DNA from: Phaeodactylum tricornutum CCAP 1055/1
Taxonomy: Eukaryota; Bacillariophyta; Bacillariophyceae; Surirellales; Neidiaceae
Reading direction: 5' to 3'
DNA: 64,000 bases
NCBI RefSeq assembly: GCF_000150955.2
Contig: NC_011684.1
Coordinates: 434,001-498,000 of the forward strand
Position numbers and translations under genes: made by a program. Positions 8,652 through 20,597 of this stretch are shown here, piece by piece. Under the pieces are notes generated by a model. The model saw nothing but the letters and a program-made list of their open reading frames with translations, was not told the DNA's origin and did not search any database. The stretch's first letter is position 1. Each line of letters begins with the position of its first letter.

Positions 8652-9117
8652 TGCGCCAAATTAGAATACCATGGAAGGTCAAGTAGAAAGGGTTGTGCCA
8701 CTGCCTGCCGAAATACGATAGAATCGAAAACTCGTGTTGTCCTCGCGTGTGCTTACACAGTTCATTCGTTTCTAGCTAGTATATGTCGCAAGTCGACTCT
8801 TTTTCATGGTTAAAAACTAGTTCCGATAATTCCAAAAGAGTGGACATTCTGATGTGTCGCACCCCTTTGGTGTCATATCTGTCGGCAGTGTCGGGCCACG
8901 CGAGCGGGAACCGCAGCTCTCGGTAACTTTTCTCGTGTGTGTACGAGAGAATCTCGTGCCGCCAACGCCGTACAAACGCTTTGCAGCAGATCCGGTTGCA
9001 GCTTCTTCCCATTTCCAATTCTTCGTTTGTATCCTTGCTGTGTCTTGCTACTGTTGGAATCAACGCTGTTCTGATCCAATCTGACGTTGCTGTATCTAGG
9101 TGTCAAACTGATTGACA
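8652..9117. promoter_or_regulatory. Shared divergent promoter region (Aven-like / PP2Ac)
   Basis: These 466 bases separate two genes transcribed away from each other, so both promoters and 5' leaders must lie here. I see no clear TATA box or other named element. Open frames here are short and carry no family signal. Confidence 0.4.
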
Positions 9118-10209
9118 ATGGAGGACACTGCCGACGCTCAAAGCACGTCGGTCTCTTCGGTAGACAGTGGGAATATCGAAACGGCTTCGACTGCTTCCTC
9201 CTCTTCGCCGACTCCGCCCGAGCGGCAACAACAGATGCCTCCTCCGCCTCCGCCTTCTAATACTTCCACGCTCGACCCGGAAAAGACATATCAAGATCTG
9301 GAAGCTTGGTTGGCAAAGCTGACAGTCGGAACTCCCTTGACTGAGCAAGAAGTTAAAAATCTTACCTCTCTGGCGCGCGAGCGGTTACTGCAAGAGTCTA
9401 ACGTGCAGCCCGTGCCAGCACCGGTGACCATTTGTGGCGACATTCATGGACAGTGGCACGACCTGATGGAGCTATTTCGTATTGGTGGGTCTGCACCCGA
9501 TACAAATTACCTATTCATGGGCGATTACGTCGATCGTGGCTATTACTCTGTGGAAACGGTGTCCTTGCTTGTCTGTCTCAAAGTGCGATATCCCGATCGG
9601 GTCTTTATTCTCCGCGGCAACCACGAAAGTCGTCAAATTACGCAAGTGTACGGATTTTATGATGAGTGTGTGAGAAAATATGGATCGGCAAATGTTTGGA
9701 AACTTTTCACGGACCTCTTTGATTACTTTCCTCTCACGGCGGTGGTAGAAAATGCCATTTTTTGTCTACACGGTGGTTTGTCCCCTTCGATTGATACATT
9801 GGATCATGTGCGCCAGCTAGACCGCGTGCAAGAAGTACCCCACGAAGGACCCATGTGCGATTTGCTCTGGTCGGATCCGGACGATCGATCTGGTTGGGGC
9901 ATCAGTCCTCGGGGAGCCGGTTTTACGTTTGGTGCCGACGTTTCCGCAGCGTTCAACGCTCGCAATGGCCTACAAACGGTAGCTCGGGCCCATCAACTCG
10001 TCATGGAGGGATACAATTGGAGTCACGAGGGGTCTGTGGTGACCATTTTCAGTGCACCGAACTATTGTTACCGCTGCGGTAATCAAGCCGCGATTCTGGA
10101 AGTCGACGAAATGCTCTCCAACAAGCAGTTTCTCCAGTTTGATCCGGCACCCCGAAGAGGTGAGCCACATTCTGCAAACGCCCGCAAAACACCTGAGTAC
10201 TTTTTGTAA
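9118..10209 (+). CDS. PP2AC: Serine/threonine phosphatase PP2A catalytic subunit
   Basis: A 363-residue protein starting at the ATG at 9118. Residues about 1-55 are a Ser/Thr/Pro-rich extension, including PPPPPP, that is absent from animal PP2Ac (309 residues). The rest aligns along its whole length with PP2Ac: the metal and catalytic motifs GDIHGQ, GDYVDRG and RGNHESR; the PP2A-type segment [34 protein letters not shown]; and the C-terminus [18 protein letters not shown]. The tail TPEYFL differs from the usual TPDYFL by one conservative change; its terminal Leu and Tyr are the carboxymethylation and regulatory sites that control B-subunit choice. [11 protein letters not shown] and the YFL end separate PP2A from PP1. 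Role: general dephosphorylation of cytosolic and nuclear proteins as the holoenzyme core. Confidence 0.95.
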
Positions 10210-11997: not shown

Positions 11998-14976
11998 ATG
12001 AAGTCCATTGTGTTGCTATCTGCCACTGCCCTGATGGGCTGTGACGCCTTCCAGGCTTGGAGCATTACCGCTGCACAGAATTATCTTGCTCGCTCTTTCT
12101 TCGATGCGCATCGGATCGATACTGAGTTTCGAACAAGATATCCAAGACACAACGTTTTGTCCCGCTTATCCGGGTCCACTTCTGGCATTGACCCTGCTCC
12201 CCAGGTCTTTGCTTCTGGCTTTTCCACGAAAACCGATCTCGTCGAAGCTTTACAGGAGGCAGTGGAAATGGCTGTTAGAGCTTTGCCTCCGGCAGCAGCA
12301 GAAAACCCGATCATCGATTTGTGTACAGTATCGGTGTCGTCTTTATATGACGGAGGTTCAAGCCCACCGACAACGGTGGTAATCCCGACAATTGTAGAAA
12401 CTGCCCGGTCAAAGTACGGGATCATTCAACACTTGATTGGTAGTTCAGTGGCGGGGTGCATTGCGAGCGTCGCAACGACTGAAGTTGATAATGCTTTGAC
12501 TGCTTGTCAACCTGTGGAGCTCGATGGAACTCCAGCTGTTTCAATTTCTCTGGCGATCCTTCCAGATGTACAGCTACGCACCTTTTTTTGCCAATCGGCT
12601 TATGTTCCTGACGATATTGGACGCATCAGTCCTGCAGAATGGAAGCGGGCCGTTGGACTCAGTGGCTTTTTGGAATCAAACAAGAAAGATGGTTCTGATA
12701 CAGAACTTAGTCAGCAGGACTCGGTTGTCATGCTTTTACCGAGTCCGGCCTTCTCGACAGAGCTCGATGACTTCTTGCTCGGTCTCTCCCTCTACTTACC
12801 CCGAGCCCAAACTTTCGGCGGCATAGCAAGTACGGTCTCATCTCTCTCGCGCGCCAAGCTATACCGATATTCAGCTGCCAGTCACTTATCCGAGTGTTTG
12901 TCCGATGGTTGCGTTGGTGTTGCAATGACAGGGGATATCCAGATTCAAAGCATGGCTGCGCACGGCGCCAAACCTGTCGGTGGTATTTATCAAATACTCA
13001 AAGGCCAAGATTCAACAATCGGCGTTATTGTCCTGGACGAGACTGCAACTCAGGCCCTGAAGGACGAAGAAGACAACGTCGATAACGATAGCGACAATGA
13101 TTCAGAAGAGTCAGAGCCATTGGACAAGAAAGCTGCTTTAGCACAAGCGTACGCCAAGGCCCAGATTCCGAAACCTGTTTTAGCCGAAGCCAATTTTTTG
13201 ATGAGAACACTGTCAGATGAAGATCAAGCTTTTATGCGTCGACAGCTTTTAATTGGGATAGATAAGGGTGGTAGTATCGGTAGGTCTGCGAGCGAACTTG
13301 CGAGACTATCGGAAGGCGAAGGACACAGGTTCACCGTGCATAAAGTAGCCACTGCGGGCATGAAGGATGGAAGTGTCACGTTCTCGTTGGGAAGTATTGA
13401 TGTTAAGACTGGTACGCGTATGAGATTCTTTGTGCGCGATTCGGAATTTGCCAAGAAGGAAGTCGAAGCTTTATGGTTCGGATACAAGAAGCGATTGTTA
13501 AACCAGCAGTTTGGGAAAGGCGAGCATACGACAGATTCCACTTTCACACGGTCGGGATGCTTTGTAATTCCAACTCTTGATCGAGGGAACAAGTTCTTTC
13601 AAGGCAAACCTGGGTATGAAAGTGGAACCGTTGCTCGCATTCTACCTACCCTTCCTACAATAAGTGGATTTTTTTCGAACGGCATCATTGGAATTACGGA
13701 GGGCGACGGTGATACTAGCACGGGTGTGCAGGGCAGCGCGACAGGTTACACATTGATTGGCAGTAAAACGGATCGACCAATATTTTCACCAGCAGCTGCA
13801 GCCGCTGCTCATACTGCAGCACAAGAAGAGAAGGAGGCCCAGGAAGCGGAAGCTGAAGCTCAGGCTCTTGTTGCGGAAGCTAACAGTAAGGTCGGGGAAA
13901 GTTATACCCAAGGAAGCAATGGCGTCGTGAAGACAGCACCTCGTTCCGAAGATGGAGAACTCATAATCAAACGCCGAGAGGTTCACTCCGGGCGAGCCAT
14001 GACAGTTTCAGCCGTCGAATGGAGTGTAGCGGAAAAGGCGGCAATTCCAACGAGCACACTGGAAGGATTTATGTGGGACAAAGAAACAGAAGTTGACCGC
14101 TTCCGAGAGCGGGTACCTCTGGTCAATCTGGTATCTCAGTGCAGATTATCACAAATGGATCCAAAAGCTCCTAAACCTCGAGGCTTCGTTGTACCAATCC
14201 AGCAAATGGTTTCGGAAGGAAAATTTGTTGTTATTCCAGAATGCAAGCGAATGGAACCCACGATCGGGAGTTTGCGACGTCGCTATGATTTGAGTAAGCT
14301 TGCTCGCGATTTCACTTTTGACGGCGCTGTAGCCATTAGTGTGAATTGCGATGCAGTCCTCTTTGGCGGGTCTCTGGGCGACGTCACTGCAGCACGTGAA
14401 GCTGCTGGTAGCGCCGTGATTGATAGCATATCAGAGGAGGGAGTCGTCGTCCCCCCAATTCTCGCATCCGACTTGATCCTTTATCCGTATCAGCTTTATA
14501 AGCTGCGTTTGGCTGGCGCCGATGCAATTAACCTCTTGGTTGGAGCTCTAGAGAAGAAAGATCTGTCATACCTTACCAAGATAGCGTCTAGTCTTCAGCT
14601 TCAGTCATTTGCCACCGTAACTTCCGAAGTGCAATTACTGGAAGTGGCAAGTCTGCAGGAAGGGACCATTGACGGAATAATCGTATCCAATCGTGAGCTT
14701 GAAGACTTTTCCTTCGATATGACTGGGGAGCAAGCATTGTACCTGTTGAAAAGCAATGCTCTGGCGAAAGTCCGCGCAAAACATGGTGAAGACCTTCTTA
14801 TCTTGGCTGAAGGAAGAGTCGGTATAATCGATCGTCCTCAGGCAGACAGCACAAGAAGTGCTAAGCTTTATATTACCGAATTAAGGGAAGCTGGCGCAGT
14901 GGGTGCGATAATGGGTGGTGCATTGGCAGTGGACGGAGGGGGGTATCAGCAGGTAGCGAAAATGGCGCAACTGTAG
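11998..14976 (+). CDS. Plastid-type FIST-domain protein fused to a degenerate IGPS (TrpC-like) domain
   Basis: A 992-residue single-exon protein. I use the ATG at 11998 (MKSIVLLSATALMGCDAF) and not the GTG at 11974: it opens a signal peptide ending in D-A-F, close to the diatom A-x-A-F plastid motif. Residues about 60-270 resemble FIST_N (IGSSVAGCIAS; AQTFGGIAS; CVGVAMTGDI). Residues about 300-560 resemble FIST_C (LLIGIDKGG; GSVTFSLGSID; SGFFSNGIIGI). An acidic stretch lies near 365 and an Ala/Glu-rich helix near 600-640. Residues about 681-985 match indole-3-glycerol-phosphate synthase, including the plant-type lead-in STLEGFMWDKETEV and YPYQLYKLRLAGADAINLL. By eye, catalytic Glu748, Lys750 and Glu938 are kept, but the other catalytic Lys is Ser824, a Glu is Thr873 and the Asn is Ser897. 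FIST domains are thought to sense small ligands. Inference: a plastid sensor with an inactive IGPS fold, not a tryptophan enzyme. Confidence 0.75.
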   Translation: MKSIVLLSATALMGCDAFQAWSITAAQNYLARSFFDAHRIDTEFRTRYPRHNVLSRLSGSTSGIDPAPQVFASGFSTKTDLVEALQEAVEMAVRALPPAAAENPIIDLCTVSVSSLYDGGSSPPTTVVIPTIVETARSKYGIIQHLIGSSVAGCIASVATTEVDNALTACQPVELDGTPAVSISLAILPDVQLRTFFCQSAYVPDDIGRISPAEWKRAVGLSGFLESNKKDGSDTELSQQDSVVMLLPSPAFSTELDDFLLGLSLYLPRAQTFGGIASTVSSLSRAKLYRYSAASHLSECLSDGCVGVAMTGDIQIQSMAAHGAKPVGGIYQILKGQDSTIGVIVLDETATQALKDEEDNVDNDSDNDSEESEPLDKKAALAQAYAKAQIPKPVLAEANFLMRTLSDEDQAFMRRQLLIGIDKGGSIGRSASELARLSEGEGHRFTVHKVATAGMKDGSVTFSLGSIDVKTGTRMRFFVRDSEFAKKEVEALWFGYKKRLLNQQFGKGEHTTDSTFTRSGCFVIPTLDRGNKFFQGKPGYESGTVARILPTLPTISGFFSNGIIGITEGDGDTSTGVQGSATGYTLIGSKTDRPIFSPAAAAAAHTAAQEEKEAQEAEAEAQALVAEANSKVGESYTQGSNGVVKTAPRSEDGELIIKRREVHSGRAMTVSAVEWSVAEKAAIPTSTLEGFMWDKETEVDRFRERVPLVNLVSQCRLSQMDPKAPKPRGFVVPIQQMVSEGKFVVIPECKRMEPTIGSLRRRYDLSKLARDFTFDGAVAISVNCDAVLFGGSLGDVTAAREAAGSAVIDSISEEGVVVPPILASDLILYPYQLYKLRLAGADAINLLVGALEKKDLSYLTKIASSLQLQSFATVTSEVQLLEVASLQEGTIDGIIVSNRELEDFSFDMTGEQALYLLKSNALAKVRAKHGEDLLILAEGRVGIIDRPQADSTRSAKLYITELREAGAVGAIMGGALAVDGGGYQQVAKMAQL

Positions 14977-15055: not shown

Positions 15056-16062
15056 CTAGTCCGAAATCGGAGTCAACCGATCTGCCCAAAACGGCTCGTC
15101 GAGTTTGAGGAAACTAAATTCATAGCACTCTCGATTGTGCACGTTTACCTCCTTGTTGAACGTCACGAACGACTGCTCTGTCAAGGCGTCGAAGAAATCC
15201 GTAGCGTTCATGGGTAACCTATAGCTTTTTGTAGCTTTTACAGGAGACGGAATTCCATGAATCTCAATGAGTATCTGTCGTGCATCTACACCAACCCAAT
15301 CTTTGTAGTTCGCCCATTCGCATCGTTCGCAGTCAATCTTAAGCAAGTCGATCGTCCGACCCTTGTGCTTGAGTTTGTCTTGAATCTCGCTGAAAGAAAG
15401 GATCTCTTCGCCGTTAATGAACGCGTCGTTATACTGTCTGTCGTAGCTGCTTCCTAGTCCCCACTGGTGATAGTGAATATTTCTTTCAGAATTTTCGGTA
15501 CGATCAAAAGAACCAAAGTCGAAAACATGAATTTCGCAATGTTGGCCAACTATGTCAATCAATCCGTCTTCAAAATCGTACTGTCCTTTGCTTCCAAATG
15601 AATAAACAAGGCAGTCTTTCTTCATCAATCGGTGTGGATCGCACACCCACTTTGGTCCATCGCCGTGCCCCCCCCGACTCTAATGACGTGGGGGCAGGTA
15701 AATTCAGGTTGGAGGTTGTCGAGGTACCATCGCCATGGCTTTTCCCAACCTTGATTGGGATCTGCGGGATTTGCGTACTGTTCAAAGCTCAAGGCCTTTC
15801 GTCGCATACGCTCCCACGTAGAATCAGGAATATCGTCAAAGAAACCAAAAGAATGTTTCGACGCTGCCGCCGTCGACCACCGGGTGGTCTCGACTACAGT
15901 GGGCCCTTCCTGATCGAACGCGCAGCTGAGGTTGCCGATGGACGATCGATATTCTGAAATTGCGACGAACACGGCCAAGATACAAGCTCCTGCAAAGATT
16001 TTTGGCGAAGAGCGAGATGTTTTTCCGTCGCTTCTGTATGGTGTCGACGTTCGGTCTCCCAT
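15056..16062 (-). CDS. Membrane-anchored methyltransferase (METTL24/PF13383-like), frame broken at a G8 run
   Basis: The 5' part starts at the ATG at 16062 (MGDRTSTPYR), has a membrane helix (IFAGACILAVFVAIS) near residue 25, and runs to LQPEFTCPHVIRVGG. The 3' part, in another frame, continues GDGPKWVCDPHRLM, CLVYSFGSKGQYDFE, HVFDFGSFD, LLKIDCERCEW and ILIEIHGI, ending at 15056. Together these are the ordered blocks of the methyltransferase family that includes animal METTL24, where a Gly-rich R-G-GDG-KWVCDP segment precedes the SAM-binding strand. The two frames meet at a run of eight G on the coding strand (15668-15675), where one base fewer or two more than expected shifts the frame. The rest is intact and I see no intron signals, so sequencing error, length polymorphism or recent loss are all possible. 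The substrate is unknown; the family acts in the secretory system. Confidence 0.72.
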
Positions 16063-16699: not shown

Positions 16700-17260
16700 T
16701 TAGAACCATTCCGCGGAACCACCAGGGTAGACCACGACATTTTTGTAGCCCGCTTTGGCTGCTATGTCTGCCGCCATACCGGCGCGCATACCTGATTTAC
16801 AGGAAAAGACCAGCCTCTCGTCGGGCAGAGGTTTAGCAATGCCGTACTTTTTCTGGAACTCTTTCTCGGGCATGGCAAATGCTCCTTCCTGAATCAGATT
16901 CAGCGGGAACGTAATGACGCTGGGAGACAAAGGACCGGTCTGCGATACTTCGGCCGGGCTCCGCACGTCCAAAGCAACTGTGCGAGTCTTTCCTCTTCCG
17001 TTCGTATCTAGATCGGCCAAAAGCGATTGCATTTCCTCCTTGTTCACTCGTTCTGCTCCTTTCCCTGTTTCTAGAAAACTGAAAAGCTGTTTCATGAATC
17101 CCATCGTTGACTTAGTGCGAGTAGCGTGTGTTGGAGAACCATCCCTTGTGGAAGGCCTCATGACATAAACAGACCGTGTACCACGAGCTAAGGGTGAGAA
17201 CCCTCGCGCAGACTGTGCCGCCAGGGCGGTAATTAAGAGAAATCCTCTGGTAAGCCTCAT
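16700..17260 (-). CDS. Rhodanese-domain protein, probably plastid-targeted
   Basis: A 186-residue protein from the ATG at 17260 (MRLTRGFLLITALAAQSARGF). The frame is open back to 17470, but those 70 residues would bury the targeting signal. The first 20 residues form a signal peptide ending S-A-R-G-F-S-P, similar to the diatom plastid motif with an essential Phe, so plastid import is likely. The body has a single rhodanese fold: VALDVRSPAEV, then the active-site loop CKSGMRAG with the persulfide-forming Cys, then AGYKNVVVYPGGSAEW. One-domain rhodaneses carry persulfide sulfur for cofactor or thiol metabolism or act as redox sensors. The substrate cannot be told. The C-terminus stops directly after the last helix, as in small plant thylakoid and stroma rhodaneses. 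Confidence 0.82.
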   Translation of the reverse strand: MRLTRGFLLITALAAQSARGFSPLARGTRSVYVMRPSTRDGSPTHATRTKSTMGFMKQLFSFLETGKGAERVNKEEMQSLLADLDTNGRGKTRTVALDVRSPAEVSQTGPLSPSVITFPLNLIQEGAFAMPEKEFQKKYGIAKPLPDERLVFSCKSGMRAGMAADIAAKAGYKNVVVYPGGSAEWF

Positions 17261-18552
17261 GATGAATTTAAATGGAACTTTTTCTCGTTGCAAATGCCTA
17301 GCTTGCGAAGTTGTGAGAGCCAATGGGTGGTTTGACTTGCCAGTGGAGATTGACACGCGGGTTCGCTTTCTCAGTAAAGGGCCTCTCACGGTCGTCACGT
17401 CCTCCTCGTTTGTCCGAGTATTCTGCATTGCTGTTGCAGATATCAGGATACAGTCACCGAGTCGACTCACCCTCAGGCCAATCGTTTGTGTATACTAAGA
17501 CGCAACATCTTCGCCAATCGCTTGCCCAGCCGTCACGACAGTCGACAAACACTCCTGTGGAGAGACTTCTCGGTGCCTATCTAAGGAAGCGTTGGACTGC
17601 TGCTGGCCCTCGTTACGGGGCCTTTCGAACCTGTTGCATTGGCGCCTCAAAATATATTATGAATCAAAGCCATAAATAATCGTAAGTAAACTATTATCTG
17701 AATAAGCTTTCAGCTGGAATATTTTTACAGTTAGACTTTTTAGATTTCCGATTGTTCCCTCAAAATATATTATGAATCAAAGCCATAAATAATCGTAAGT
17801 AAACTATTATCTGAATAAGCTTTCAGCTGGAATATTTTTACAGTTAGACTTTTTAGATTTCCGATTGTTATAAGCAGGCCGCTTTCATAGTCACTGTCGA
17901 TGCGATTTTTCTGGACCCAAATGTCGCAAATAACCACCAAAAAAATGTCTTAAACACCGCAGACGAACTGTTTTTCATGATGCTGGATCGGAACATACTG
18001 GGAAAAGGAGGAGCGAAATGGATTTAGTTAACAAAATCTAATTACTTGGGAAATCGCCTTTGATACTTAGCAAAATCTCTAGGTTTTGGCCGGATCAGTG
18101 AATATCCTCTTGAATTTATCGCTACTGGCAGGCTTGTCCAAAGTCCGATGAGAACGATGGACAAGTTGTAATTAACGTCAGAGCAAGGATTTCAATAATG
18201 ATCTAATGTTTGATTTCTTACAATACAAGCAGATTTTAAAATTATAGGGATGTTGAGCACGATTTCGACTTTGGTTTTGCGAGATTTTTATCCTGGCAGA
18301 TGGTCCGAAGTGTAGGAGCGAGGGTACCGAAGAGTTCGGCAATCCTGCATGAAAAAGTGGCGCAATGCGTAGTGTCGGCCTCCTATTCATCCTTCTCAAG
18401 GAAAACAACGTTTCGTCATTTACAGTTAATCGTGGCCCAGATGACTTACATTGAAATTCCGGATAATACAAAGTCTTGATTGCCTCAAAGACGCGAAGCA
18501 GTGGTTGGCCTGCAGAGAAGCATAATTTCAGAGGAGCCTGTGATAAAAAATC
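17261..18552. other. Intergenic region holding a tandem duplication
   Basis: Apart from the 113-bp tandem duplication listed separately, I see only AT-rich sequence and short frames. The left end is the rhodanese upstream region; the right end is the 5' flank of the sulfotransferase-like gene at 18553. Confidence 0.45.
17645..17869. repeat. Perfect 113-bp direct tandem duplication
   Basis: The unit beginning CCTCAAAATATATTATGAAT at 17645 is repeated base for base from 17758, giving a period of 113. The unit is AT-rich and has no long frame. Perfect identity suggests a recent duplication or a local assembly duplication. Confidence 0.9.
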
Positions 18553-19935: not shown

Positions 19936-20597
19936 GTAGTAGGCTTTTCAGCGTGATCTAACTCTCCTATCGTGTTTATGGTCGCCCTTGCTAGTTTTTT
20001 TTTTCACCTGCATCGTTTCGCGTTTTCCTGCAATAAAATCCGGGTAGAGAACCATCGTTCAACTACCCTTGTATGGGATGGCGCCGCGCAAAAGGTAGCA
20101 TGGTCAAGTCTTCCAAAGAGTTCGGCTATGAGTTTACATTTGCGGAAGCGGAATTGAGAGGGACGGAAGGATTCCAGTTTACTGTGACGTGTCTCACGAT
20201 CGATCCAGTTCCGATGTAGAGATCGTCCGGCGTGCCAAGAGTGTCTGACCAATGAATCATTTGAATTTCTATGTATATATATTATTTTAGTATATTATTT
20301 GTCCCATGTTTGACGAATTTAGACAGCACCCATCGTCGCCTTGACCGAGTTGTGTCTCTGGAAACGGGCCGACGCCCCAACGACAATGGTGCGCCACGGT
20401 GTTGCTGCAGCACCGCTCTCGACACACCCAATTGTCCATTCGGACGTTACGATTCCGTACCGTTCCGACAAGTTGCATCCACAGTCAGCGTAAACGGTAC
20501 CCACGGAAGTAAGGGAAGCTTTGGTGGGGATTGGTGTATTTGTAGACAGATTCATTTGAAAGCCGTGACACTCCCGGCATTGTCGTCCTCGTCGAGT
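19936..20597. other. Intergenic / 5' leader of the coiled-coil gene
   Basis: The frame of the coiled-coil gene is open back to an ATG at 20271, but the extra 109 residues are Cys-rich and without a domain, so I treat this as leader. It also holds the 3' flank of the preceding gene. No other signal seen. Confidence 0.4.

What the first reader, a model, noticed from the sequence alone, without database searches (positions are those of the whole stretch)
11998..14976. Plastid-type FIST sensor fused to an inactive-looking IGPS domain
Seen: an N-terminal signal with D-A-F end, a FIST_N/FIST_C-like region, then about 300 residues with the plant-type IGPS lead-in and order of blocks. Three positions that IGPS needs are altered by my alignment (Lys to Ser824, Glu to Thr873, Asn to Ser897), while Glu748, Lys750 and Glu938 remain. 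Known: FIST domains are proposed small-ligand sensors; IGPS binds a phosphorylated, aromatic substrate. Inference: the pseudo-IGPS barrel may have been kept as a ligand-binding module, for example for tryptophan-pathway intermediates. I know of no description of this fusion.
Basis: partly seen in the sequence, partly recalled or inferred. Interest (0 to 1): 0.82.

Follow-up and report, generated by a model that had tools for sequence, protein, structure and literature searches.

The report
Diatom FIST–pseudo-IGPS fusion protein
Diatoms carry a conserved, probably plastid-targeted protein that joins a FIST domain to a tryptophan-pathway enzyme barrel whose catalytic residues are replaced while its pocket stays conserved, so the databases' name for it (a tryptophan enzyme) is probably wrong and its real job is open to test.

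The parts
11998..12060 (+). N-terminal leader (residues 1-21): hydrophobic helix then D-A-F, like a diatom bipartite plastid signal
   Evidence: Sequence. [AS]F at residues 9-45 in 70 of 98 sequences (window protein included) that start with Met and have 900 aa or more, against 35.9 expected from shuffles. No signal-prediction tool was available; the plastid reading is inference.
12187..13788 (+). FIST domain (residues 64-597)
13789..13935 (+). Variable charged/alanine-rich linker (residues 598-646)
   Evidence: Mean column entropy 2.68 bits over 598-645; helix 598-628 predicted.
13936..14112 (+). IGPS lead-in (residues 647-705), on average the most conserved of the stretches compared although AF2 gives residues 658-703 pLDDT under 50
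   Evidence: Mean entropy 0.49 bits against 1.38 for the barrel; 692-706 is, tied with 828-842, the most conserved 15-residue island (0.21 bits); pLDDT; NF001372 match starts at 662.
14113..14973 (+). IGPS-like (beta/alpha)8 barrel (residues 706-992)
14239..14247 (+). Glu748 and Lys750 (IGPS Glu51, Lys53), kept
   Evidence: Of 120: Lys 120; Glu 107, Asp 10, Gln 3.
14344..14346 (+). Asn783 at the end of strand 2, Leu in 6 of 6 canonical IGPS compared; new conserved residue
   Evidence: Asn 118 of 120; table.
14467..14469 (+). Ser824 in place of catalytic Lys110
   Evidence: Ser 111 of 120, Lys 0 of 120; alignment.
14614..14616 (+). Thr873 in place of catalytic Glu159
   Evidence: Thr 74, Ser 33, Lys 6, other 7 of 120; Glu/Asp 0.
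14686..14694 (+). Ser897-Asn898-Arg899: Ser in place of Asn180, Arg182 equivalent kept
   Evidence: Ser 119 of 120, Asn898 and Arg899 120 of 120.
14809..14811 (+). Glu938 at the end of strand 7, taken as IGPS Glu210 by place, not by alignment
   Evidence: Glu 92 of the 105 with a residue there; strand 934-938; not aligned to the bacterial Glu.

Best explanation
A diatom-wide, nucleus-encoded and probably plastid-targeted two-module pseudo-enzyme. Shown here: FIST domain, variable linker, conserved lead-in and an IGPS barrel in one chain; loss of Lys110, Glu159 and Asn180 fixed across the sequences compared; retention of Lys53, Arg182 and the Gly233 position; strong constraint on the pocket rim and the lead-in. 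Inferred: the barrel no longer makes indole-3-glycerol phosphate but still binds a phosphorylated ligand (CdRP/IGP-like or another sugar phosphate). The lead-in, which precedes the barrel where IGPS helix alpha0 helps to enclose the substrate, folds or moves on binding. The FIST module, as a protein-docking or second ligand site, passes the state to a partner, plausibly a plastid enzyme such as TrpC-TrpF or tryptophan synthase. This would resemble TSB-like, the non-catalytic plant paralogue that activates tryptophan synthase alpha.
For: Of the 120 rows listed (query included) 120 carry PF00218 and 92 also PF08495; five rows of about 1000 aa carry transcript names marked complete (P0039, P0050, P0053, P0056, P0103; two of these, P0053 and P0056, without the Pfam FIST mark). 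None of 240 sequences (120 long, 120 shorter) has a canonical residue at the three lost positions. Essentiality of Lys53, Lys110, Glu159 and Asn180, Arg182 as conserved active-site residue, and helix alpha0 at the substrate: passages of PMC7681013. Pocket rim entropy 0.68 bits against 1.38 for the whole barrel and 1.20 for the opposite strand ends; 1 of 261 rotations and 0 of 20,000 random draws as low. Gly973, at the Gly233 place, 97 of 103. A canonical TrpC-TrpF is present in the genome. Precedent for pseudo-enzyme control in this pathway: TSB-like (abstract of PMC12727527).
Against: No ligand, partner, localisation or expression was measured. Conserved Lys750, Glu748, Asp785, Asp825, Cys784 and Glu938 could support a different reaction, so 'pseudo' may be wrong. 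The FIST of FBXO22 has no obvious ligand pocket (passages of PMC11185555). Nothing ties the ligand to tryptophan metabolism beyond homology. The lead-in is not resolved by AF2 (pLDDT under 50), so the lid idea is untested. The entropies are unweighted and the sequences related, so the rotation count is a description, not a strict probability.
Confidence: 0.45

Rival explanations
1. A new enzyme: the barrel kept its phosphate grip and gained new catalytic residues, so it catalyses another reaction on a phosphorylated ligand, with FIST as a regulatory or second catalytic domain.
Against: No enzyme known to me uses this residue set; phosphate sites and acids also serve pure binding. No activity data. 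The chorismatase match is shared by the FBXO22 FIST, which is no enzyme.
Confidence: 0.3
2. A plastid-biogenesis or scaffold factor of the PfAMR1 kind: an IGPS-like protein whose loss affects the complex plastid itself and not tryptophan.
For: PfAMR1 is an IGPS-like protein with altered active site, required for the apicoplast; Vitrella has two IGPS-like genes beside a canonical IGPS (section 13 of PMC6380595). The genome of the window likewise has a canonical TrpC-TrpF and IGPS-like genes besides.
Against: No AMR1 sequence could be fetched: the search with the L004 paralogue gave 24 hits, none with an organism name. Tree tests among the local paralogues were indecisive (fusion with L004 family p-AU 0.114). 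Three IGPS-like genes exist here, so AMR1 may match another one. The word FIST does not occur in the main text of PMC6380595.
Confidence: 0.15
3. Still an IGPS, using alternative residues.
For: Lys53 is kept in every long sequence and Glu51 in most, and one proposal gives these two the dehydration step (passages of PMC7681013). Databases name many relatives 'indole-3-glycerol phosphate synthase'.
Against: Lys110, Glu159 and Asn180 are described as essential in bacteria (PMC7681013) and are absent in all 240 sequences compared. Editing the diatom TrpC-TrpF gene gave 1 auxotrophic of 35 subclones (Table 1 of PMC7431573), though that gene also supplies PRAI, so this is weak.
Confidence: 0.04
4. 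Assembly or gene-model artefact joining two genes.
For: None found.
Against: Single ORF without intron; same fusion in 92 of 120 rows by Pfam, some from transcript sets.
Confidence: 0.01

Closest known systems
[quoted passage not shown]
   Different: Lys110, Glu159, Asn180 replaced in all 240 sequences compared; fused to FIST; 128 bits against an NCBIfam cut-off of 370
PfAMR1 and Vitrella IGPS-like proteins (PMC6380595; section 13 read)
   Same: IGPS-like barrel with altered active-site residues, in organisms with complex plastids, beside or without a canonical IGPS
   Different: No FIST mentioned there; sequence relation not tested here because no AMR1 sequence could be fetched
Leucomyxa TrpF-TrpC pseudo-enzyme (PMC11528492; passages read)
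   Same: Ochrophyte protein whose TrpC region lost an essential lysine, plastid-linked, function undefined
   Different: Fused to TrpF, not FIST; Lys to Ala; no other tryptophan enzymes found in that organism
FIST domain of FBXO22 (8ua3, 8ua6) and bacterial NosP
   Different: FBXO22 is an F-box protein that binds BACH1; NosP binds haem and senses NO (passages of PMC11185555 and PMC12570481). No IGPS barrel is described in either passage; NosP was not compared here
Plant TSB-like pseudo-enzyme (PMC12727527; abstract and outline seen)
   Same: Tryptophan-pathway paralogue that lost key residues; model for how this could work
   Different: From tryptophan synthase beta, a different fold, no FIST

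Membership tests
IGPS enzyme (EC 4.1.1.48) | (beta/alpha)8 barrel homologous to IGPS | tested here: met
IGPS enzyme (EC 4.1.1.48) | Essential Lys53 | tested here: met
   Lys750, 120 of 120 long sequences
IGPS enzyme (EC 4.1.1.48) | Essential Lys110, Glu159, Asn180 | tested here: not met
   Ser824, Thr873, Ser897; 0 of 240 sequences have Lys, Glu/Asp or Asn there; 6 of 6 canonical sequences compared have all three
IGPS enzyme (EC 4.1.1.48) | Conversion of CdRP to IGP | not testable with these tools
   Needs enzyme assay
FIST domain | FIST fold | tested here: met
FIST domain | Pfam FIST N/FIST_C profile match | tested here: inconclusive
   Window protein below cut-off (FIST_C 14.2 bits). FIST N above cut-off in 8 of 8 rescanned relatives, picked from rows already so marked, FIST_C above it in 0 of 8; FIST N precomputed in 92 of 120 rows
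IGPS-like plastid proteins (PfAMR1 kind) | IGPS barrel with non-conserved functional residues | tested here: met
IGPS-like plastid proteins (PfAMR1 kind) | Common descent with AMR1 | not tested
   No AMR1 sequence obtained; only local paralogues tested: fusion with L004 family p-AU 0.114, with L002 too p-AU 0.512
IGPS-like plastid proteins (PfAMR1 kind) | Plastid location | tested here: inconclusive
   Leader motif only: 70 of 98 against 35.9 shuffled
IGPS-like plastid proteins (PfAMR1 kind) | Needed for plastid biogenesis; no trpC complementation | not testable with these tools
   Needs knockout and complementation
NosP-type haem FIST | Haem binding | not tested
   His443 is conserved in 115 of 120, but the NosP haem ligand was not mapped

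The most novel reading that the evidence does not exclude
The fusion is a plastid-biogenesis regulator of the kind shared by red-derived complex plastids: a former tryptophan enzyme turned into a receptor (or new enzyme) for a phosphorylated signal metabolite, with the FIST module, whose fold is nearest to chorismatase after FBXO22, as a second metabolite or protein site. It would be the photosynthetic counterpart of PfAMR1.
Probability: 0.1. Interest if true: 0.87.

Novelty: new variant of a known kind. Interest (0 to 1): 0.6.

Why it matters
A protein kept across diatoms, with its most conserved parts in a changed active site and a lead-in, is being annotated as a tryptophan enzyme it most likely is not. 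P. tricornutum can be edited (passages of PMC7431573), so the function of IGPS-like proteins of complex plastids, for which I found one functional study, a malaria screen (PMC6380595), could be studied in a free-living photosynthetic model. It would also test whether a FIST domain works in a plastid.

Tried and rejected
Active IGPS: rejected as main reading because three essential residues are absent in all 240 sequences compared. Decaying pseudogene: rejected, because the pocket rim is more conserved than the rest. Gene-model artefact: rejected.

Prokaryotic origin of the fusion: the scan of genome contigs with the barrel alignment gave 103 pattern matches and one remote relative, 24% identity, in Winogradskyella (L006); I did not examine it, and it dropped out of my table because my motif filter found no frame in it. 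Plasmid tblastn with the barrel gave 48 records, all under 60% identity; the 40 listed have 24.8-34.9%, and where features are named they are trpC, trpCF or trpD. Plasmid tblastn with the FIST part gave none. Origin of the barrel is open: the fusion clade has 100/100 support and falls with the canonical enzymes apart from L004 and L002 (95/94, with a long-branch warning), but holding fusion and L004 together is not rejected (p-AU 0.114), nor fusion with TrpC-TrpF (0.251), nor all IGPS-like together (0.512). No cyanobacterial or plant IGPS could be fetched, so a cyanobacterial/plant-type origin of the lead-in is not shown.

Taxonomic limits: the best 120 of 210 and of 315 hits were listed, and about 8000 candidates scored each time, so non-diatom relatives could be hidden. 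A search for another PRAI gene in the genome did not complete, nor a FIST N search. The viral scan with part of TrpC-TrpF found nothing and adds nothing. The Pfam scan of alignment A1 was too large.

Papers: searches showed me no description of the fusion. 0 papers hold both 'FIST domain' and 'indole-3-glycerol'. In one search, 5 of 15 papers hold 'fist' with 'Phaeodactylum tricornutum' and 1 'fist' with 'indole-3-glycerol'; I judged these six irrelevant by title and did not open them. Of those 15 I saw passages of PMC9425035, PMC7431573, PMC11843938, PMC3901274 and PMC3942023. Jiroutova et al. 2007 and Borziak and Zhulin 2007 are not held and were not read. PMC9425035 reports an IGPS gene up under CHES-induced alkalisation without saying which.

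Full report
What is there. The window lies on contig C16 of a 27.45-Mb, 88-contig assembly. The ORF at 11998-14976 (+) is intact and needs no intron: 992 residues from the ATG at 11998.

The active site. Lys53, Lys110, Glu159 and Asn180 are described as essential for IGPS activity, and Arg182 as a conserved active-site residue (passages of PMC7681013). In five bacterial enzymes and the genome's own TrpC-TrpF these are K, K, E, N, R; in the window protein they are K, S, T, S, R (alignment to solved IGPS). In the 120 long sequences (709-1134 aa, the window protein included) Lys750 and Arg899 are 120 of 120, Ser824 is 111, Ser897 119, and position 873 is Thr 74, Ser 33, Lys 6 and others 7. None of these 120 and none of 120 shorter sequences has Lys at 824, Glu/Asp at 873 or Asn at 897. 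The shorter ones (two of them 99-100% identical to the window protein) look mostly like pieces of the same genes from metagenomes, so the two sets are not independent species counts. Glu938 is kept in 92 of 105, but its match to IGPS Glu210 rests on its place at the end of strand 7 and not on the alignment.

Constraint. I took four residues at the C-terminal end of each of the eight predicted strands, where the ligand of such barrels sits. Their mean column entropy is 0.68 bits; the barrel as a whole has 1.38 and the opposite strand ends 1.20. Of 261 rotations of the same position pattern along the barrel one is as low, of 20,000 random draws none. The lead-in before the barrel (647-705) is lower still, 0.49 bits, although AF2 does not resolve most of it. 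Leader and linker vary freely (2.89 and 2.68 bits). This is the mark of a used pocket with changed chemistry, not of decay. The FIST part has 42 polar positions conserved in 97% or more of the sequences with a residue there, which suggests that it too holds a specific site.

Genome context. The assembly has four IGPS-family loci: a TrpC-TrpF (L001), two other IGPS-like genes (L002, L004) and this one. L002 keeps K, E and N but has Tyr at Arg182; L004 has Asn, Ala, Leu at the three catalytic positions. Their N-termini look hydrophobic by eye. A tree of 28 rows puts the 11 fusion barrels together (100/100) and the L004 family together (100/99), with the fusion on the side of the canonical enzymes (95/94, long-branch warning). 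Whether the IGPS-like groups share one origin is not decided (p-AU 0.114 for fusion plus L004, 0.512 with L002 too). Neighbours in the window look unrelated: a Metallophos (PP2A-like by eye) gene at 9112-10209, a Methyltransf_22 gene at 15056-15646 and a rhodanese gene at 16700-17470. Gene order says little about function in a eukaryote.

Known relatives in print. PfAMR1 of Plasmodium is an IGPS-like protein that lost functional residues, did not replace E. coli trpC and is needed for the apicoplast; Vitrella has two such genes beside a canonical one (section 13 of PMC6380595; the authors could not detect the tagged protein in that assay). Leucomyxa has a TrpF-TrpC fusion read as a pseudo-enzyme (passages of PMC11528492). 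In P. tricornutum editing of the TrpC-TrpF gene gave 1 auxotrophic of 35 subclones (Table 1 of PMC7431573); since that gene carries two activities, this only weakly says that the other IGPS homologues cannot replace it. An earlier review counted two ORFs for this enzyme in P. tricornutum (passages of PMC3901274). No paper in the library holds both 'FIST domain' and 'indole-3-glycerol', and the other searches showed me no description of the fusion; protein databases do list it, often under the name IGPS.

How it most likely works. Residues on the phosphate side are kept and three essential catalytic residues are gone, so binding without IGPS turnover is the simplest reading, with the constrained lead-in as the moving part and FIST as the output or second input. 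New chemistry in the pocket is the main rival and cannot be told apart by sequence. The link to tryptophan metabolites is plausible only by descent.

Verdict. Real, conserved and probably misnamed in databases; a FIST-fused variant of the IGPS-like class of complex-plastid proteins. Interest 0.6: surprising and testable, but the inactive IGPS idea itself has a precedent and the function is unproven.

Noticed in passing
L002 931-2289 (+), G000:C1: 452-aa IGPS-like protein that keeps the Lys110, Glu159 and Asn180 equivalents but has Tyr at Arg182; may be a second diverged IGPS-like gene.
   Followed up: partly
L004 1360-2553 (-), G000:C6: 397-aa IGPS-like protein with an ASFAF-like leader and Asn, Ala, Leu at the catalytic positions; 24 hits, from 100% down to 31% identity.
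   Followed up: partly
L005 1878-3032 (-), G000:C19: 384-aa ORF whose start looks F-box-like by eye, with a sub-threshold FIST N match, ahead of an ORF over the FIST_C hit: looks like an FBXO22-type protein.
   Followed up: no
window 20271-26405 (+): 2044-aa ORF with strong AT skew (0.28-0.31 over 22-26 kb) and no Pfam match at E 0.001.
   Followed up: partly
window 13936-14112: The lead-in is highly conserved yet poorly resolved by AF2; Arg659, Arg660, Arg666 and Trp675 are invariant in 62 sequences.
   Followed up: partly
window 12910-12912, 13558-13560, 14347-14349: Cys305, Cys521 and Cys784 are conserved in 119, 115 and 110 of 120 sequences; a redox role in the plastid is conceivable.
   Followed up: no
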